The notes below the pieces were generated by a model that searched no databases, had not been told where the DNA came from, and saw only the letters and a list, made by a program, of their open reading frames with translations. Below are positions 29,553-42,093 of a DNA stretch of 45,794 nucleotides, in pieces (the stretch's first letter is position 1; each line of letters begins with the position of its first letter). Location of the stretch: assembly GCA_001512965.1 (NCBI GenBank), contig LFRW01000022.1, positions 67,836 through 113,629 of the forward strand. The letters run 5' to 3'. Source of the DNA: Methanomicrobia archaeon DTU008 (GTDB lineage: Archaea; Thermoplasmatota; Thermoplasmata; Methanomassiliicoccales; Methanomassiliicoccaceae). A program made the translations under genes and the position numbers.

Positions 29553-29652
29553 TATTGGCTGTCTGACGGGCTGAAGAAACCGACCCTTTCCCCCGGATGG
29601 GCCTGACTGAAAAGAGCAAAGCCTGAACACCCTCCTCCGCCTTTCTTCCCAT

Positions 29653-31247
29653 AGAATCCCGAGCTACAGCACTATGCCAAAGCTAGTCAGTTAACTTGGA
29701 TTTTCCATCAATCGAAGTTGTACTAAGGCAATGAACAGATGTTGAACCCTCTGAAGCGTCCCTAGCCGACGCTGCAGTCAACTTTGGGGCTGGAGTCCCG
29801 ACCGATTCTCCATGGCGAGAGCCTCTTGAGGATTCACTACCTACTCGATGGAGGAGTATGCCGATTCAATGTAACTAAGCCTGCTTCGACCGTCAAGATT
29901 TCTAAAAATTCGCCCTTCGTCCTCGATCAGGCCGGAACCCTCTTTCACCCATACTTGAGGTGGGCTTTCGAGAATAGGAGACGCCGCGTGGCGTGGTCTC
30001 GCGGGGAGCTTACGATGGCCCAAACAATATTGATATCGATCTGGAAATGAAACTTTGACCAAATCAGGCCAACAGGAGGCGCGTATGGGCGGCCCACCTT
30101 CTCGACAGCATGTCGATGCATTAGCGATAGATCGAGTACATCCGTTCGAACCATTGTCGACCGATTTCGACCGGATTTAGTCAAGGGGATTGAGCAAGCC
30201 AGTGATGAAGTACACCCCTCATCCCCTGAAGACTATCATCTGGACATGGATGGGGGGGAGGCGACGCTGGCTTGTACAAATCTAAAAATGAAGTTGATGA
30301 ACTGCTCGCCCCGAAAGTCTCGAAGTCATGTTAATGGCTTGAGGCAGGAAGACACATCGAACGCTCCGTTGAGCAGGGCAAGCCGACTATTTCAGGACGA
30401 CAATGGATCGAACCAAAATTGACATGTCGATGTACCATATGTAGCCGCGAACGATGGGCGTGTCAACCTGGATGCTAATAATCGGAAGAAAGTGTATGTG
30501 CAGATAGTCGCGCCCATATCAATGGTTGTGTGATATTCTCCTGTTGCGAAGGTCGGTGGCCTGCATCGAACCGATACATGCTGTTCGGATGGCCAGAGCT
30601 GGATCACGCCACCATTTGGCAAGGATCGACCTATCTCAAAGGCGCACTCAGATATAGCGGTGAGGCCCACACGTTGGGCATGTAGCGAGGTTGGTTTTTA
30701 ATGCGGGAATCGAATAGAAGTTGTTGGTCTGGCTCCAGAGCGTGTGATGGTACCAGATCAATTCGCTGATGCTTGTGTATTATCATCAATTGGGTCAGGA
30801 ATCCATCGGCATCATGGAGAGCTTCAGCGGATGGGGACTGGGCGAGCCGTCCTGAGAATGGTATCGTTCAGTTCGCATCCTCGGAGAAAGGTTACTCGAT
30901 CTAGTACTTGAGAGAAGTCCTGACCCTGTGTGTTAGGTCGACTAACGCCACAGAGGAAGATCGAGGTTGAACAGGCAGACCTCCAATCAGCCAAGACCGT
31001 CTTGACTTCCCCGAAGCGAGGATGGGTCTCAAGGAGGCAGACAGAACCGCACAAGGAGAAGCTAGCAGTATAGAGCCACAGATGGGACTGTGTTCGGACC
31101 CATTGAGTAGCATGGTCAAGCTCTTGGGCGGATAGCGACCGGGCATATACATGACCCGTCCTGTGAAGATGAGACGCACATGATGGCTTCAGAAACAGAC
31201 CTTTGTTCCATTCGCCATTAGGCCTCGCCATTCGAGGCTCGCTTCAA
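29653..31247. other. Long stretch without an intact gene
   Basis: About 1.6 kb between the S6e promoter and the HD gene contains no open frame that I can recognise. The frames present are short, on both strands, and do not look like proteins. Between about 30890 and 31240 one plus-strand frame stays open except for three stops (TGA, TAG, TGA) and reads somewhat like a decayed coding region. No terminal inverted repeats of an insertion sequence were found. It looks like eroded, possibly laterally acquired DNA. Confidence 0.55.
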
Positions 31248-31263
31248 TTTTTAATATTTATTT
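31248..31263 (+). promoter_or_regulatory. TATA-like region of the HD module
   Basis: The AT-rich run TTTTTAATATTTATTT lies about 35-45 nt before the TTG start of the HD gene. It is the only promoter-like sequence before the two-gene unit. The following leader carries two GGAG ribosome-site motifs. Confidence 0.45.
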
Positions 31264-31294
31264 ACCTTTACTGAAAGAAGGAGCGGAGAGCCAC

Positions 31295-32197
31295 TTGGAT
31301 CTGTTTGAGATAAGGGACCCATTGTATGGCTTCGTTGAGGTCAATGAATGGGAGAGGACCATCATCGATCATCCTGCATTCCAGAGATTGAGACATATCA
31401 AACAACTTGGTCTCACCGAGTACATATACCCAAGCGCGACCCACTCGAGGTTTGAGCATTCAATAGGCACGATGAGTCTAGCAAGTCAGATGTACGATTG
31501 CATCGTTGGAAAAGAAAAGAACATCCAGATCCTCAAAGATAATCTCAGCTTCAATGAGTCAGGAATCGAGCGTGATAGGCAGCTCATCCGTCTTGCCGCC
31601 CTCGTCCATGACATCGGGCACTCGCCATTCTCTCACGCGCCCGAGGATTTGATGCCAATCAACCCACAAACGGGTAAGCCTTACAGGCATGAAGACTATA
31701 CCGTAGCGGTTATCAAAGGGCCACTGAAGGCAGTCATAGAAGAACACCCCATCAACGGTAACTATCATATCCAAGCTGACGAGGTGGCAGCTGTCATCGA
31801 GGGTAATGCTGCCGTCCTGAAAGACAGGGTGTTCTGGAAGGTCCTCATCTCCGGCCAGTTGGATGCCGACCGGGGCGACTATCTCCTTAGAGACTCGCAT
31901 CATATAGGCGTCAAGTACGGAGTCTACGACTACTCAAGGATGGTGAAATCCCTAGTCCTTGGGACCGATCCCGAGTCCGGCGAGGTGATATTAGGTATAA
32001 GTCATGGTAGCAGGCAGGTCGCAGAGGCGGTCATACTAGCAAGATATCAGATGTTCACACAGGTATACTTCCACAAGACACGTAGGGCTTACGACTTCCA
32101 TCTGAACGGCGCGATGAGAGAGGTCTTGCCAAACGGTCTTCTTCCGCCCCCAGATAAGATTGAAGAATACATCAGTTATGATGACTCGAAGATCTAG
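31295..32197 (+). CDS. HD-domain phosphohydrolase, part before in-frame amber
   Basis: The first 300 residues of a COG1078-type (YwfO/SAMHD1-like) HD phosphohydrolase; the family includes dNTP triphosphohydrolases. Residues visible: EIRDPLYGFVEV at the N-terminus, FQRLRHIKQLG, HSRFEHSIGTM (His55), the HD pair in LVHDIGHSPFSH (His105, Asp106), and the conserved LDADRGDYLLRDSHHIG (Asp190, Asp192). All metal-binding residues are therefore present. The start is TTG with GGAG at 31285-31288. The frame ends at TAG (32195-32197), but the same frame continues for 121 more codons that look like the rest of the family's C-terminal region. The local DNA is AT-richer than the flanks, suggesting lateral transfer. 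Confidence 0.88.
   Translation: MDLFEIRDPLYGFVEVNEWERTIIDHPAFQRLRHIKQLGLTEYIYPSATHSRFEHSIGTMSLASQMYDCIVGKEKNIQILKDNLSFNESGIERDRQLIRLAALVHDIGHSPFSHAPEDLMPINPQTGKPYRHEDYTVAVIKGPLKAVIEEHPINGNYHIQADEVAAVIEGNAAVLKDRVFWKVLISGQLDADRGDYLLRDSHHIGVKYGVYDYSRMVKSLVLGTDPESGEVILGISHGSRQVAEAVILARYQMFTQVYFHKTRRAYDFHLNGAMREVLPNGLLPPPDKIEEYISYDDSKI
32195..32197 (+). other. In-frame amber codon inside the HD gene
   Basis: A TAG follows YDDSKI and is followed in the same frame by TMIKQASEKPD, continuing to a TAA at 32558-32560. It is either a nonsense mutation, a termination-reinitiation point (an ATG lies one codon later), or a read-through site such as pyrrolysine in some methanogens. Elsewhere in this window TAG serves as an ordinary stop for several conserved genes, so it is not recoded wholesale. 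Confidence 0.7.
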
Positions 32198-32200
32198 ACC

Positions 32201-32560
32201 ATGATCAAGCAGGCCTCCGAAAAGCCTGACTGTAAGGCGGTGGTGAATTGGAGCCATATTCGCCTACTCCATAATACGTCAGAAACACCAGATGAGAAGG
32301 AGATGGATTACTTCGAAGGATTGGTCAAGGCGCTCGATAAGAAGGAGATATGGAACCATGTAGATCTAGCTGAAACCACCTGGTACAGACTAAATGACCA
32401 AGAGAGCAAGGAGATAAGCATCATCGATAAGTGGGGAAAGGTTGATCCACTTTCAAGCTTCTCGAAGATAGTTAAAAATATGGGAGCAGTAAAACGATCA
32501 TCAGTATACGTCAAAATGGCTGATAGAGAGATGGCAGAACAGATAAAGAAAGGGATGTAA
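32201..32560 (+). CDS. C-terminal part of the HD phosphohydrolase after the amber codon
   Basis: This 119-codon frame is in phase with the HD gene and begins at an ATG one codon after the TAG. It reads WSHIRLLHNTSETPDEKEMD, then LVKALDKKEIWNHVDLAETTWY and a basic end (MAEQIKKGM). This matches the position and length of the C-terminal helical region of COG1078 proteins, so read-through would give a 421-residue protein of normal size. No sign of decay beyond the amber codon is visible: there are no frameshifts or further stops. It could be made separately by reinitiation and assemble with the N-terminal part. The next gene starts five bases after its stop. Confidence 0.7.
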   Translation: MIKQASEKPDCKAVVNWSHIRLLHNTSETPDEKEMDYFEGLVKALDKKEIWNHVDLAETTWYRLNDQESKEISIIDKWGKVDPLSSFSKIVKNMGAVKRSSVYVKMADREMAEQIKKGM

Positions 32561-32565
32561 GAGGG

Positions 32566-33096
32566 ATGGATGTGGCGAGGGCCAAAATCTCGTTCAACAA
32601 TGTGGCAATGATCGGGTACCTGGTAAAGGAGCTTAATGAAAAATATCCAGACGCGCAGGTGGGCAAGACAGTGGTTCAGAAGATGATGTTTCTCCTGAAC
32701 AGGATGAAGATCTGCGACTTTAACTACACCCTTTACCACTACGGTCCATTCTCATCCGAGGTGGCAAATGAGCTGGACTACGCCAGCGATCTAGGGATTG
32801 TAGAGATCGAGTGGGAAGAGGATAAGGGTTACTTCATCAGGCCATTGGAGAAGAATGGGACGTATAACATCGAACTCTCCAGCGACAGTAAAAAAGCCAT
32901 AGACTATCTAGTGAGCACATATGGCAGGTTTAACGCCGCCGAACTCTCAATAATAGCAACTGGTTACTATTTGATGGACAATTTCGGAATCCAAGATTGT
33001 GGCCTGCCTCAGGCAGTACATGAGATAAAACCCAAGTTCGGCATTGAGAAAATAAGGAATGTCTTAGCAGAAGGGCTTGTTACGAGAAAGGAGTAA
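32566..33096 (+). CDS. YwgA/DUF4065-like (Panacea-type) protein
   Basis: A 176-residue soluble protein resembling YwgA and the SocA/GepA-like DUF4065 (Panacea) proteins. The signature is an N-terminal helix with MIGYLVKELNEK, then VGKTVVQKMMFLLNRMK, the aromatic segment YTLYHYGPFSSEVANELDYAS, a basic/acidic middle, and a C-terminal helix with AAELSIIATGYYL. Panacea domains are known as broadly neutralising antitoxin modules, whereas YwgA itself is uncharacterised. In Bacillus subtilis, as I recall, ywgA lies next to ywfO, the relative of the HD gene here, so this pair is a conserved module across domains. It starts five bases after the HD stop. A GTG two codons later is an alternative start. 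Confidence 0.78.
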   Translation: MDVARAKISFNNVAMIGYLVKELNEKYPDAQVGKTVVQKMMFLLNRMKICDFNYTLYHYGPFSSEVANELDYASDLGIVEIEWEEDKGYFIRPLEKNGTYNIELSSDSKKAIDYLVSTYGRFNAAELSIIATGYYLMDNFGIQDCGLPQAVHEIKPKFGIEKIRNVLAEGLVTRKE

Positions 33097-34038
33097 TATC
33101 ATATCCCAGACTTTGGCCATCGTAACATCGACCGTCATGGTTGGAAGATGCTAGGACTTCCCGTTTCCATTCTACGCCTTCCACCATGGATATTGATTGC
33201 TATTGTCCCATGAGCGAGCAGGACAATTCCGATGACTGTATCGGAACGAAGAGTGGAGAAAATATGGATGAGAGTGTGCTCGAGCTTCGCCATCGAGCTT
33301 AATAACTGACCAATTCCATTGAAATGGAGTGATGGATGCACCTTCAGAGAGTATTGTATTTACATCTGCCTATGCAAGCATACCATATTCAAATTTAAAT
33401 TGATAGAAGCAATGGAAAAAACCGAAGCAGGCCTGAGAGCTATCGACAATACTGAGAAATCTCGGTAATTTTTGTCCCACACCATATATTAATACGAGAT
33501 AGACACACCAGTTAGCAAGGCGACATTATCCCCATAAAGCTCTACGGAACGATGCGCTCAGACACGAAGATCCATTTCCTTTACTATATATGTTAATTGG
33601 TTTTTCATCCTGTTCGAGTTGCTAGTTATGCCTTACGGCAATTACTGCTGGACCGTGTCGAGGACAGGTAATGGCCAATTTCTTAGCCATTCTCAAAGGG
33701 GATGTGCAACACTGTGCAACACTTGAGCTAAACAGACGTGTGTAAGAAGGACTATGAGCTGGATGTCGATCGTTACTTTGATGGTTTGACAGATATTCGA
33801 TTAATAGAACTCATTCGATTAAAGATCCTCAGCATGCCTGAATTCCAAGACCGCAGACCAGTGCAGCAGAATGCCATCATTGCATCCTAGGGTTTTAACA
33901 TGGTTTTCTTAACCTATAGGGCAAATTGCTATTCTCCCATAGTCGACAAATTGGACGAAATCGAGTTTTCCCGTCAGCTATCCGCAGCCATTGGAGGATC
34001 TCAGCATGACGCTTGCGGCCAGGATGTCAATTATAATG
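33097..34038. other. AT-rich stretch without a gene
   Basis: About 0.94 kb after the HD module with no convincing frame. It includes several TATA-like runs (for example around 33480-33495 and 33580-33600) and a tandem 10-base repeat. It seems to be the right flank of the AT-rich island that carries the HD module. Confidence 0.55.
33703..33722 (+). repeat. Tandem 10-base repeat
   Basis: TGTGCAACAC occurs twice without a gap. Nothing else nearby repeats it, so it is probably a chance or slippage duplication. Confidence 0.4.
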
Positions 34039-34047
34039 CAATAAAAT
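34039..34047 (+). promoter_or_regulatory. TATA-like box of the GyrI-like gene
   Basis: GCAATAAAATGC is centred about 25 nt before the ATG at 34067, indicating a leaderless mRNA and supporting that start over the one at 34046. Confidence 0.45.
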
Positions 34048-34066
34048 GCTATACTGCCGTGAGAAC

Positions 34067-37947: not shown

Positions 37948-40900
37948 ATGCGGGCATGTCAAGGCCCGCCCTGGATGGGAAAGATGAGCGAGCTTGACGG
38001 GAATGGTCCGGATATCAACGTGACCGATATCGGGGACTACGTCGACAAGAACTGTTGCGAGCGCGACCTGAAGCTTCGACTGATCAGTCGTAAGGATCCT
38101 GACGCATTGAACCGGATGTTCCCCTATCGTCAAACGATCAGGGGGACCCTCGATCCGGTCCTATCCATGTCTGGACGAAATAGAGAGGCGGAGGTCGAAG
38201 CGGCCCTCTCCCAGCGCATGCGCTGCCTGAACCCATCCATCGAGGGCGAGGAGAACAACATGCGATGGAGCGGCCTACTTTCCGCCCTCCGTACGCTGGA
38301 GCAAGGGGAGGAATGCTTCGCCCGGGAGGTGGAGATCGATCGCAGGATCGGCAAGTATCTGATCACGGGCAGGATGGACTTCGTCATACTGACGTGGAAG
38401 GAGCAGAGGCCGGTCCTGCGCATCGTCGAATGCAAGGCCAGCAGGAAGGAGAAGACCTATCACCGCATCCAACTGGCCGCCTATCGCCTGATGGTCGAGG
38501 AGGAGCTTCGCGAAACGCCCCCGGTGATCGCCGGAAGGGTCCACGACGATGTCGAGGTGGAAGCGGTGGTGGTCCGCATCGATGAGGGGTCGCGCCGTGC
38601 GCAGGACGCCATTGACATGCCATCGCTCGAACTGCGGGAAGAGATGGATGACGTGAGGCGCCTGCTCGCCCCAGGAGGGCCGGTGGATGTCATCGACGCC
38701 ACCCCCCTGGATGAACTGAGCTATCGATTGGACGAGAAGTGCGACAGTTGCTTCCACGATACCATATGCATGCCGGAGAGTGAAAGGCAGGCCAGGCTGG
38801 AACTGCTGGGACTCGACCCGGTCACTGTGAGGGCTCTTCGCAAGGGAGGTGTCGGAGACCTTCTGGCCCTGGCCGATCTCGATCTCTCGTCCCCCCAGGC
38901 ATCGGCCTTGCGCAACACGCCAGGCTTCGGCGCGGACCTGGACGATCTGGTGAGGCGCGCCAAGGCGCGCCGTTCCACCCTCCCCGGCCGCCACGAGAAC
39001 GATTTCCAGGTGATGTCGCTGGTCCATCACGGCATCAGCCTTCTGCCAGCGCACCGGAACGAGGCGGGATTCCAAACCATACGGGTATATCTCAGCGTCG
39101 AGTACGATAACGTGGAGGACCGTGTCGTCGGCCTGTGCGCTCACATCACCGACAGCAAGGACATGATATTCACAGTCTGGAACGACGATGCCCCTGATGC
39201 CGTTCCCCAGGAGGGGGCGGAGGAGGGTGTGGCCGGTCCCTTGCAGGGCGCATACGTCATCAGGATGATGGAGAGCGGGTGGAGCGGCGTCGTCGAGGAT
39301 GACGACCGGACCGAGGGGGAAATGGTCTCCTCCTTCTTCGAAGGGCTGGGGAGGGCGATATCGGCCATCGCGGGGAAGGACGAGTTTCGCCCGATACACT
39401 TCTATGTATGGTCATCGAGGGAGATGACCGCCCTGGTCGAGTCATGCTCCCGGGCGGGAGGACCATTGCTGCGCAGCCTCACCGAGCTACTGGGCTGCCG
39501 GGAGAAATGCCGCGGAGACCTGGAGCAGCTGATCTTCACCTCCATCTCCGATGAGATCTCAAGAAGCAGGGCGCTGGGCCATACATCCTTCAGCCTTCCC
39601 CTGGCGGCAAGCGTTCGATGGTATGGGAAGTCGTTCCACTGGCATCGCATCGTGGGCGAGGAGCCTGTGGACCTCGCGTATGCGTTCAAGCGGGACCTGT
39701 TCGATAATCGCGCATATCTCTACCTCACCGAGGACGGGAGATGGGCGCCCGAGGGTCGAAGGTCTCCCGGCGCCCAGCGCCGGTACATGGAGGTGCGCAC
39801 CAGGTTCCGTTCCAGCATACCGATCCCATACTGGCATGCCATGTGGGGAACTCTCCCGGACAAGGATGAATGGAAGGACCCCATGCTGCGCAGGGCCCTC
39901 GTCGACTACCGTCGGGGCGGCAGGCCTGAACTGATCAGGGCGTTCCTGATGGCCAAATGCGAAGCCCTCCGATGGCTGGAGGAGCGGCTCGACGCCAAGA
40001 ACAGCAGGGTGGAGAAGCCCATGGTCCCTGTCAAGGAGCTGGGCGATTTGGAGCGATACTTCACCGACCGCTATGACCTTGTCAGGGCCTGCCAGGACTT
40101 TCTCCGCCTTGACCATCATCGAGACAAGACCGAGTGGCTGGCCGAACTGGCCAGATCGCCGGCGGCCATGGTGGCGGAGGGGACCTGCATGCCCCTCCGC
40201 AACGTCCGCTTCCAAAGGGAGGGAAGGAGGACCGTGTTCGAGGCCTACATGGACATCGAGAGGTACGGCATGGACCTCTCCTCGTTCCTGTCGTCCTGCG
40301 GCCTGGACACCGGAATGATGCGCATAACGCCGTACGATGGGAGCATCGAACGCGGACCCAGCGCATACCAGGCATTATATGGCGGCGTCACGGCGTCGGT
40401 CACCTTGATGGATATGGAGAAAGGCATCGTCCAGGGAGATGTCATACCCTACTCGGATAGGGGCCTGGGCTCTGACTACATCCTCACTTCCACCCCTCCA
40501 AAGGAAGGCAGGATGGACTTCGCCCTGGCTGGGGAGTCCAAGTCGGCCTATGTCCGAAATAAGGTGGACCGATGGCTCGAGGAGAACCGCCATGCTCCTT
40601 CGATCGAATGGTTCGACCCCATCGCGCCCGCCGTCCCTGTCCGCGAGGCGCCTGCTGCAGAGCGGTTGGATTCGTACCGTACAGTGCTGAGCGAGATGCG
40701 GCTGAGACGATCTCCCCTGGACGACGTACAGATCCAGGCCTGCCTTGAAGGGCTGTGCTCCACAGTGCAATTGATCCTCGGGCCTCCCGGCACCGGGAAG
40801 ACGAACACCGCCTCGGCGGCCATAATGATCAGGCTGGCCACTCGGCCAGGCAACAAGCTGTTCCTCCTATCCGCCACCACCCACACGGCCGTGGACGAAC

Positions 40901-42093
40901 TGTCAGGTAGGCTCAGAGAGGCGGTGCCGGAGTTCCACAGGGCAGCCGAGATGGCGGGGATCGATGTCGGTCCTGTGACCGTCCTGAACATAAGGAAGGA
41001 ACCGTCAGGATGCGATGAGATAACCTACGAGGATGTCGCCGTCATCAAGGAGCGCCTGCTTGATGGCGACGTGGTGGTGTGCGGCACCGTCAACGACCTT
41101 CTGAGACTAGGCGAGAACTTCGAGAGGCAACGATGGCCCCGGGTGACGGCTCGCGCGGACGGCTTGGTGGTGGACGAGGCGTCCATGATGCTCTTCCCTG
41201 AATTCCTGGCCCTCTCGACCCTTGTGGCCGAGGACGGGGAGATCATGCTGGCCGGCGATCACATGCAGCTGTCGCCGATCACCGCCCATGATTGGGGACG
41301 GGAGACCAGGGAGCAGGTCATGAAGTTGTACCCCCACGAGTCCGCATATAATGCGATGAGGCGCTTGGCCAGGGCCTGCCCCGAAGGTGCCATGAAACAA
41401 TCGGCCCTGTCCATAACCTATCGCCTGACGCCCGAGATCACCTACCTCATATCCTCGGTGTACCGAAAGGAGGGTGTGGAGCTGGTGTCCAACAAGGTGC
41501 ATGTCAGGAAGCAAGGGACCTTTACGTGCCTGGCGGACGTCTGGAGATCGCCGGGAGTATATCTGGTGGTCCACGGCGAGTCGTCATCACGGAAGAGCAA
41601 TCCGTTCGAGGCCACGCTCATACGGGACATCATACTGGCCAGGGGAGCGAGCGAGGCGGACGTGCCGCCTGGGACGATATCGATAATCACCCCGCATCGA
41701 GCTCAGAGGGGGCTCCTGAAGGAGAGGCTTAGCGACCTGGAATACCATATAAGACTGATCGACACCGTCGAGCGCCTTCAGGGAGGAGAGTGCCAGACCA
41801 TCATAGTGTCTGGAACGCAGAGCGACGCCATGGCCATCAGCAGCAACGCCGAGTTCATCCTGGACCTCAACCGCACGAACGTCATATTCTCCCGCGCGCA
41901 GGAACGGCTGGTGGTCGTGTGCTCCAAGAACCTCCTTGACAGCATGCCATCCGACTTCGATGACTACTCATCGTCCGTTCTATGGAAGCATCTTCGCGCA
42001 GTGTGTGACCGCACCATGCTCCATCTGGACGGGTACGAACATGTCGTGGAGGTCAGGGTCCCGGGCCGATTCTGGGATGGAGGTGTGGAATGA
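37948..42093 (+). CDS. Cas4-like nuclease fused to SF1 (Dna2/UPF1-like) helicase
   Basis: A 1381-residue protein. Residues 25-280 form a PD-(D/E)XK nuclease of the RecB/Cas4 type: Glu128 (REVEI), Asp144 (GRMDFV), Glu161-x-Lys163 (VECKAS) and Gln175 (HRIQLAAYR). It has an iron-sulfur cysteine set like Cas4 and Dna2: Cys36/37 before the core and Cys265, Cys268, Cys274 (CDSCFHDTIC) after it. A middle region (about 280-900) of unclear fold follows. The C-terminal SF1 helicase has Walker [14 protein letters not shown] (near 943-953), Walker B VVDEASMM (near 1071) and late motifs RLQGGECQTIIVSG and NRTNVIFSRAQERL. It should process DNA ends or flaps. Start uncertain: ATG 37948, 37975 or 37984. It overlaps the DUF1294 gene by four bases. 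Confidence 0.9.
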   Translation: MRACQGPPWMGKMSELDGNGPDINVTDIGDYVDKNCCERDLKLRLISRKDPDALNRMFPYRQTIRGTLDPVLSMSGRNREAEVEAALSQRMRCLNPSIEGEENNMRWSGLLSALRTLEQGEECFAREVEIDRRIGKYLITGRMDFVILTWKEQRPVLRIVECKASRKEKTYHRIQLAAYRLMVEEELRETPPVIAGRVHDDVEVEAVVVRIDEGSRRAQDAIDMPSLELREEMDDVRRLLAPGGPVDVIDATPLDELSYRLDEKCDSCFHDTICMPESERQARLELLGLDPVTVRALRKGGVGDLLALADLDLSSPQASALRNTPGFGADLDDLVRRAKARRSTLPGRHENDFQVMSLVHHGISLLPAHRNEAGFQTIRVYLSVEYDNVEDRVVGLCAHITDSKDMIFTVWNDDAPDAVPQEGAEEGVAGPLQGAYVIRMMESGWSGVVEDDDRTEGEMVSSFFEGLGRAISAIAGKDEFRPIHFYVWSSREMTALVESCSRAGGPLLRSLTELLGCREKCRGDLEQLIFTSISDEISRSRALGHTSFSLPLAASVRWYGKSFHWHRIVGEEPVDLAYAFKRDLFDNRAYLYLTEDGRWAPEGRRSPGAQRRYMEVRTRFRSSIPIPYWHAMWGTLPDKDEWKDPMLRRALVDYRRGGRPELIRAFLMAKCEALRWLEERLDAKNSRVEKPMVPVKELGDLERYFTDRYDLVRACQDFLRLDHHRDKTEWLAELARSPAAMVAEGTCMPLRNVRFQREGRRTVFEAYMDIERYGMDLSSFLSSCGLDTGMMRITPYDGSIERGPSAYQALYGGVTASVTLMDMEKGIVQGDVIPYSDRGLGSDYILTSTPPKEGRMDFALAGESKSAYVRNKVDRWLEENRHAPSIEWFDPIAPAVPVREAPAAERLDSYRTVLSEMRLRRSPLDDVQIQACLEGLCSTVQLILGPPGTGKTNTASAAIMIRLATRPGNKLFLLSATTHTAVDELSGRLREAVPEFHRAAEMAGIDVGPVTVLNIRKEPSGCDEITYEDVAVIKERLLDGDVVVCGTVNDLLRLGENFERQRWPRVTARADGLVVDEASMMLFPEFLALSTLVAEDGEIMLAGDHMQLSPITAHDWGRETREQVMKLYPHESAYNAMRRLARACPEGAMKQSALSITYRLTPEITYLISSVYRKEGVELVSNKVHVRKQGTFTCLADVWRSPGVYLVVHGESSSRKSNPFEATLIRDIILARGASEADVPPGTISIITPHRAQRGLLKERLSDLEYHIRLIDTVERLQGGECQTIIVSGTQSDAMAISSNAEFILDLNRTNVIFSRAQERLVVVCSKNLLDSMPSDFDDYSSSVLWKHLRAVCDRTMLHLDGYEHVVEVRVPGRFWDGGVE

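What the first reader, a model, noticed from the sequence alone, without database searches (positions are those of the whole stretch)
31295..33096. Two-gene HD hydrolase + YwgA/DUF4065 module in an AT-rich island: candidate defence or toxin-antitoxin system
A dNTPase-like HD protein is followed five bases later by a YwgA/Panacea-like protein. The same families are neighbours in Bacillus (ywfO-ywgA, from memory), so a conserved association across domains seems likely. HD dNTP hydrolases can block phages by nucleotide depletion, and DUF4065 proteins are known as antitoxins. The pair lies alone in AT-richer DNA between two gene-poor stretches, as expected of an acquired accessory module. I know of no described function for this pair in archaea.
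Basis: partly seen in the sequence, partly recalled or inferred. Interest (0 to 1): 0.75.

Follow-up and report, generated by a model that had tools for sequence, protein, structure and literature searches.

The report
Mobile dNTPase–antitoxin-like pair, here interrupted
A methane-producing archaeon has picked up a two-gene cassette, a SAMHD1-like enzyme that should destroy DNA building blocks plus a small DarG/Panacea-like protein that probably restrains it; the cassette recurs in many bacteria and archaea, often among virus-defence genes, but the enzyme gene in this copy carries an in-frame stop codon.

Summary
The HD gene (31295, TTG) stops at TAG 32195-32197 after 300 codons. The same frame runs on to 32560 as a collinear C-terminal domain, so 'five bases' to the Ywg gene (32566-33096) holds only if TAG is read through. 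Intact relatives are 400-450 aa. The pair lies in a ~4.5-kb, 48% GC insertion (29558-34065); congeners have 0.25-0.44 kb there. Retrieving relatives by the HD protein alone gave a clade in which 30 of 32 testable loci have a Ywg gene directly downstream, in about nine phyla, against 0 of 35 other HD proteins. HD and Ywg distances correlate (r = 0.73). Neighbours are enriched in defence genes: one pair lies between brxC and pglX, another follows pglX-pglZ. HD keeps the dNTPase residues and SAMHD1/EF1143 fold. The Ywg model's only significant PDB match is the DarT-blocking domain of DarG. Best reading: a toxin-antitoxin-like antiviral dNTPase module not modelled in PADLOC. The copy here is probably truncated. 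Pyrrolysine read-through is not excluded (congeners have PylS; the genome has an mtmB with TAG). Binding, toxicity and defence are untested.

The parts
29558..34065 (.). Acquired insertion (~4.5 kb, 48% GC) holding only the HD-Ywg pair; absent from congeners
   Evidence: Synteny: window 29557 and 34066 are 246 bp apart in G001, about 270 bp in G003, 439 bp in G005
31248..31263 (+). Possible archaeal TATA-like promoter element; GGAG at 31280-31283 as possible ribosome-binding site (inference from sequence only)
   Evidence: read; no test
31295..32197 (+). HD (SAMHD1/EF1143-like) dNTP hydrolase, catalytic part, 300 aa up to the in-frame TAG; all conserved HD/HE/D residues present
32195..32197 (+). 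In-frame TAG inside predicted helix 297-306; the column is hydrophobic or aromatic in 26 of 27 relatives, never lysine
32198..32560 (+). Open continuation of the same frame: C-terminal domain (120 codons to TAA), collinear with intact relatives
32566..33096 (+). Ywg: Panacea/SocA-like, DarG-C-terminal-domain-like protein, 176 aa, intact

Best explanation
The pair is a horizontally spread two-gene module. Gene 1 is a SAMHD1/EF1143-type dNTP triphosphohydrolase (effector). Gene 2 is a stand-alone DarG-C/Panacea-type protein that most likely binds gene 1's product and keeps it off in uninfected cells (type II toxin-antitoxin-like); infection would release or trigger the enzyme, drain dNTPs and stop viral replication. 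Shown here by computation: gene pairing, co-inheritance, mobility, defence-gene neighbourhoods, active-site and fold conservation. Inferred: substrate, inhibition, trigger, defence. In this genome the HD gene is interrupted by TAG after the catalytic core, so this copy is probably a decayed effector with an intact partner, or makes a 300-aa core without its C-terminal domain.
For: HD catalytic residues invariant in 28 relatives (H50, R52, H105-D106, H109, H132-E133, D192, D195, R199-D200); fold matches 2hek, the dNTPase EF1143 (3irh/4lrl) and SAMHD1 along the whole chain. Ywg directly downstream, usually with 4-bp overlap, in 30 of 32 testable loci found by HD alone, against 0 of 35 other HD proteins. 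Mantel r = 0.73, best of 5000 permutations 0.32. Clade spread over about nine phyla; window and its family member G007 lie in different subclades. Empty site in congeners. 63 PADLOC families at E<=1e-20 among 137 neighbours of pairs against 4 among 125 control neighbours; BrxC|pair|PglX in L060, PglX-PglZ upstream in L125, BrxD-BrxHI upstream in L083, type IIG RM enzymes in L093 and L077. Ywg: PF13274 over cut-off, DarG HMM over positions 160-329 for relatives, Foldseek top 7yk3 DarG E 8e-5, the only hits below 1e-3. DarG's C-terminal domain blocks DarT by binding (PMC11481870); Panacea antitoxins neutralise by complex formation (PMC8832971).
Against: No experiment. The control neighbours differ in taxa from the pair loci. 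Many pair loci show no recognised defence neighbour within 4 kb. DarG fold similarity does not show that the target is the HD protein. In the window itself no defence system is next to the pair (the 37948-42093 helicase-nuclease, only weakly like MkoA/Cas4, is conserved in congeners). The window HD gene is interrupted.
Confidence: 0.6

Rival explanations
1. Nucleotide-pool housekeeping: the HD enzyme trims dNTPs and Ywg is an ordinary regulator; defence neighbourhoods are incidental.
For: HD proteins of this superfamily are widespread in genomes; the window's own genome and relatives carry a separate conserved HD paralogue; many pair loci lack recognised defence neighbours; the Bacillota clade is large.
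Against: The pair is patchy (6 of 390 genomes of the phylum), inserted at an otherwise empty site, lies in a clade apart from the housekeeping HD, and has defence-enriched neighbours.
Confidence: 0.2
2. Dead gene: the copy in this archaeon is a decayed pseudogene (or the TAG is an assembly error in a metagenome-assembled genome), so the locus does nothing here even if the family is a defence module.
For: Single in-frame TAG at a hydrophobic column inside a helix; TAG ends 10 of 33 ordinary window genes and 16-18% of long ORFs in the sampled genome; related HD genes are also frame-shifted in L059 and L091.
Against: After the TAG there is no further stop or frameshift in 120 codons, and its divergence is not raised (post/pre identity ratio 0.45 against 0.48 +/- 0.10 for intact pairs); Ywg and the HD catalytic core are intact. 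A young mutation would look the same.
Confidence: 0.55
3. Pyrrolysine read-through: TAG is translated in this methanogen and the full 421-aa HD protein is made.
For: 13 of 15 genomes of the family, including all five congeners, have PylS; the window's genome has a full-length mtmB with in-frame TAG; the reading frame after the TAG is clean.
Against: PylS and PylB are not found in this assembly; the ~8.8-kb pyl cluster of G001 is exactly missing at a suspicious join on contig 16. The TAG column is hydrophobic or aromatic, never Lys, in relatives. The G007 homologue (PylS present) has no TAG. TAG is an ordinary stop in 15-18% of long ORFs in both genomes.
Confidence: 0.12
4. Ywg is the sensor or a proteolysis adaptor (SocA-like) rather than a direct inhibitor, or the HD enzyme acts on a nucleotide signal or modified nucleotide instead of dNTPs.
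For: SocA, also a Panacea protein, works as a ClpXP adaptor (PMC8832971); Clover shows that a partner gene can control a dNTPase by a nucleotide signal (PMC12265719).
Against: Results for tested Panacea antitoxins were most consistent with direct binding (PMC8832971); the DarG domain is a direct blocker (PMC11481870); Ywg has no recognised enzyme domain.
Confidence: 0.2

Closest known systems
Anti-phage dGTPases (PADLOC dGTPase; NCBIfam NF041026)
   Same: HD-superfamily dNTP hydrolase, likely dNTP depletion
   Different: Only weak, partial matches (20-45 bits; the NCBIfam cut-off is 400 bits); no Panacea/DarG partner is modelled with them
Clover (CloA dNTPase + CloB nucleotidyltransferase; PMC12265719)
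   Same: Two-gene system: a dNTPase held in check by a partner gene
   Different: Partner here is a DarG/Panacea-fold protein, not a nucleotidyltransferase
PanAT toxin-antitoxin systems (Panacea/DUF4065, PMC8832971)
   Same: Second protein carries the Panacea domain and sits next to a putative effector
   Different: HD dNTPase is not named among the toxins in the main text (HD domain, dGTP, NTPase: no occurrence); only 10 of 29 partners match PF13274 at E<=0.01; supplement not read
DarTG (DarG C-terminal domain, 7yk3)
   Same: Fold and profile match of Ywg to the DarT-binding, DNA-mimicking domain
   Different: No macrodomain and no DarT; partner is an HD hydrolase
EF1143 / SAMHD1 dNTPases (2hek, 3irh, 4lrl)
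   Same: Fold, HD_assoc domain, active-site residues
   Different: Not known as two-gene cassettes with a Ywg partner; window copy interrupted

Membership tests
SAMHD1/EF1143-type HD dNTP triphosphohydrolase | HD metal-binding and HE catalytic residues | tested here: met
   invariant in 28 sequences including the window
SAMHD1/EF1143-type HD dNTP triphosphohydrolase | Fold along the whole chain | tested here: met
   model of the read-through sequence pLDDT 93.5; Foldseek E 1e-21 to 2hek, 1e-20 to 4lrl
SAMHD1/EF1143-type HD dNTP triphosphohydrolase | Complete open reading frame including C-terminal domain | tested here: not met
   in-frame TAG at codon 301; met in relatives such as L058
SAMHD1/EF1143-type HD dNTP triphosphohydrolase | dNTP triphosphohydrolase activity | not testable with these tools
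   biochemistry needed
Panacea (PF13274) antitoxin | Pfam model over its cut-off | tested here: met
   27.8 against 25.7 bits; 10 of 29 family members at E<=0.01
Panacea (PF13274) antitoxin | Neutralises a neighbouring toxic protein | not testable with these tools
   needs expression tests
DarG antitoxin | C-terminal DarT-binding domain fold | tested here: met
   Foldseek 7yk3_B/D E 8e-5 and 3e-4, TM 0.62-0.69; profile E 1e-7
DarG antitoxin | Macrodomain plus DarT gene | tested here: not met
   176-aa protein without macrodomain; neighbour is HD
Clover | Nucleotidyltransferase partner (CloB) | tested here: not met
   partner matches SocA_Panacea, no nucleotidyltransferase domain
PADLOC anti-phage dGTPase | Strong match over the full model | tested here: not met
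   31-45 bits over about 75-80 of 395 positions
Defence-island gene | Enrichment of defence genes next to homologues | tested here: met
   (taxa of control set not matched)
Pyrrolysine protein | Pyl machinery in the organism | tested here: inconclusive
   PylS/PylB absent from the assembly but PylS present in all congeners; mtmB with TAG present
Pyrrolysine protein | TAG conserved in homologues | tested here: not met
   no other homologue aligned has TAG or Lys there

The most novel reading that the evidence does not exclude
The HD-Ywg cassette is an undescribed cross-domain antiviral dNTPase system, and in this methanogen the full effector is made only when the amber codon is read as pyrrolysine, so that the defence enzyme is gated by the genetic-code expansion and hence by methylamine metabolism.
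Probability: 0.06. Interest if true: 0.85.

Novelty: new variant of a known kind. Interest (0 to 1): 0.62.

Why it matters
If the inference holds, a SAMHD1-like dNTPase paired with a DarG/Panacea-type inhibitor is a widespread two-gene immune module that uses nucleotide depletion in both archaea and bacteria and rides inside BREX-like operons. It would join two known themes (dNTP depletion; Panacea/DarG neutralisation) in a combination that PADLOC does not model and for which I found no description. It can be tested directly with ordinary toxicity, rescue and phage-plating assays on intact homologues.

Tried and rejected
A direct relative of Ywg in genome contigs by the single sequence: none; the 7-row Ywg alignment was too diverse for pattern search. 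Plasmids and phages: no full-length pair found. My first conclusion (no PylS, hence no pyrrolysine) was withdrawn. TAG frequency does not separate the Pyl and non-Pyl cases, because a PylS-bearing congener uses TAG at the same rate. An orthologue scan for internal stops was dominated by shadow ORFs and is not used. Rfam found no RNA element in the insertion; no flanking repeats, tRNA or integrase were found that would show how it entered. Neighbours in the IMG/VR contig L137 could not be named, so its viral origin is unverified. The viral structure library gave nothing significant for Ywg. Searches for the families together in papers found no description.

Full report
WHAT IS THERE. The first gene starts at TTG 31295 and encodes RDPLYGF...HSRFEHS...HDIGHSPFSH...RHEDYT...LDADRGDYLLRDS, an HD hydrolase (PF01966 E 5e-9). 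By the standard code it ends at a TAG at 32195-32197 after 300 codons. The same frame stays open to TAA 32560. This second part is homologous: tblastn with the read-through protein aligns residues 6-412 with an uninterrupted 448-aa protein of a relative (G007) and residues 4-417 with a 420-aa Methanothrix protein (L058, 54% identity). PF19276 rises from 22.9 to 28.7 bits, over its cut-off of 23.1, when the stop is bridged. The second gene, 32566-33096, is intact and passes the cut-off of PF13274 SocA_Panacea (27.8 against 25.7 bits).

THE TAG. The genome is a 1.76-Mb, 59-contig assembly estimated 99% complete. Thirteen of 15 genomes of its family, including all five congeners, have pyrrolysyl-tRNA synthetase over the cut-off; this assembly has none, nor PylB. 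Yet it has a full-length mtmB with an in-frame TAG. The reason may be an assembly fault or a real deletion: on contig 16 the sequence follows G001 to position 32,674 of its contig 11 and then jumps to 41,451, skipping the pyl cluster, with 99% identity to G001 for 1.1 kb after the join. So pyrrolysine decoding in this organism is unresolved. TAG is an ordinary stop here (10 of 33 window genes; 16-18% of long ORFs in this genome and 15-18% in PylS-bearing G001; 11% was reported as the maximum in the three first genomes of the methanogen order Methanomassiliicoccales, PMC3941956, to which I take this family to belong by inference). The interrupted column is hydrophobic or aromatic in 26 of 27 relatives and never lysine, and lies inside predicted helix 297-306. 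A nonsense mutation or an assembly error is therefore more likely than a pyrrolysine residue. The part after the TAG has not decayed further, so the event is recent or tolerated. HD genes are also frame-shifted in two related loci, L059 and L091; these too are metagenome assemblies.

AN ACQUIRED INSERTION. Aligning the window with congeners shows that window 29557 (upstream of the gene for ribosomal protein S6e) and 34066 are neighbours elsewhere: 246 bp apart in G001, about 270 bp in G003, 439 bp in G005, against 4.5 kb in the window. The inserted DNA has 48% G+C against 59% in the rest of the window, with GC3 0.53-0.60 against 0.76. It carries no other convincing gene, no tRNA, no Rfam element and no flanking repeats. 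The host also has an ordinary HD paralogue on contig 16 that is conserved in the family and lies in a different clade of the tree.

THE PAIR ELSEWHERE. In 390 genomes of the phylum, a Ywg-like gene was found with an HD gene beside it in six; a more sensitive profile search gave no further pairs among its best 30 loci. A scan of 84,980 species genomes by the HD alignment alone returned 80 loci. Counting loci found by HD only, in the clade that holds the window protein 30 of 32 loci that extend past the HD gene have a Ywg gene directly downstream, mostly overlapping by 4 bp; none of 35 HD proteins outside this clade does. The clade covers Methanothrix, Methanophagales, Bacillota, Acidobacteriota, Pseudomonadota, Planctomycetota, Ignavibacteriota, Nitrospirota, Chloroflexota, Coatesbacteria and one contig of a viral collection (L137, origin unverified). 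The window protein is nearest to Methanothrix and Methanophagales, whereas G007 of the same family lies among Clostridia, which points to separate acquisitions. HD and Ywg distances correlate (Mantel r = 0.73; largest of 5000 permutations 0.32), so the two travel together. A second HD clade in Thermoplasmatota also has Ywg partners, twice in the order Ywg-HD.

DEFENCE NEIGHBOURHOOD. In L060 the pair lies between brxC (1198 bits) and pglX (1555 bits). In L125 pglX and pglZ precede it; in L083 brxD and brxHI-like genes (also like Shango SngB/SngC) precede it; L077 and L093 have type IIG restriction-methylation enzymes beside it. G007 has a BrxHI-like helicase gene directly upstream, and G240 an HmaA/NOV_C-like gene. 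Over 137 neighbour proteins of pairs, 63 PADLOC families match at E<=1e-20; over 125 neighbours of control HD genes, 4 do. These are counts of families, not proteins, and the control genomes are of other taxa.

PROTEINS. The HD family keeps H50, R52, H55, H105-D106, H109, H114, H132-E133, D192, D195-Y196 and R199-D200 without exception in 28 sequences. The predicted structure of the read-through sequence (pLDDT 93.5) matches 2hek, the dNTPase EF1143 of Enterococcus faecalis (3irh, 4lrl) and SAMHD1 over its length. The catalytic core lies before the TAG; what is lost is the C-terminal domain, which in SAMHD1-type enzymes helps to build the tetramer (established knowledge, not tested). Ywg is predicted with pLDDT 94. 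The only PDB entry below E 1e-3 is DarG of Mycobacterium tuberculosis in complex with DarT (7yk3, E 8e-5, TM 0.62-0.69); the family profile finds the same chain and no other (E 1e-7). That domain blocks DarT by mimicking ssDNA in its binding site (as summarised in PMC11481870). PADLOC sees Ywg relatives mainly as DarG C-termini and the HD only as a weak generic dGTPase, so the pair is not modelled there.

MECHANISM. I propose that Ywg holds the dNTPase inactive by binding it, and that infection frees or activates the enzyme, which drains dNTPs. Shown by computation: pairing, co-inheritance, mobility, context, active site, folds. Inferred: activity, inhibition, trigger and defence. For the copy in this window the likeliest state is a truncated effector with an intact partner.

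NOVELTY. Searches of open papers for the families found dNTPase defence with another partner (Clover, PMC12265719) and Panacea antitoxins with other toxins (PMC8832971, whose main text names no HD or dNTPase toxin; its data sets were not readable here). I rate the pair a new variant of a known kind.

Noticed in passing
own genome contig 16, 26432-28400 (locus L166): mtmB with in-frame TAG next to a join that skips exactly the pyl cluster and second mtmB of congener G001, with 99% identity to G001 for 1.1 kb after the join: real deletion or chimeric assembly.
   Followed up: partly
window 37948-42093: 1381-aa protein with Cas4-like nuclease and helicase parts, weakly similar to MkoA/DpdJ defence models; conserved at this place in congeners, so probably not part of the insertion.
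   Followed up: partly
L054:423-1220 (G043): Panacea/Ywg-like domain that appears to be fused to a DUF488-like domain in one protein (recognised by eye, not searched).
   Followed up: no
L049:9320-10267 (G105): Apparent DarG: macrodomain followed by the Ywg-like domain, an archaeal relative that links the two families.
   Followed up: partly
L059 and L091: HD genes of the same clade interrupted by frameshifts, with Ywg intact in L091; repeated loss of the effector frame or assembly errors.
   Followed up: partly
L047, L046, L045: A separate HD clade in Thermoplasmatota with Ywg partners, in the order Ywg-HD in two of three: a second origin or rearrangement of the association.
   Followed up: partly
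L043:13613-19356 (G007): Genes of 1119, 180 and 603 aa upstream of a BrxHI-like helicase and the HD-Ywg pair, without Pfam matches: possibly an undescribed defence operon.
   Followed up: partly
L048:9840-10376 (G309): The closest Ywg relative in the phylum by single-sequence search (E 6e-14) has no HD neighbour; its partner is unknown.
   Followed up: no
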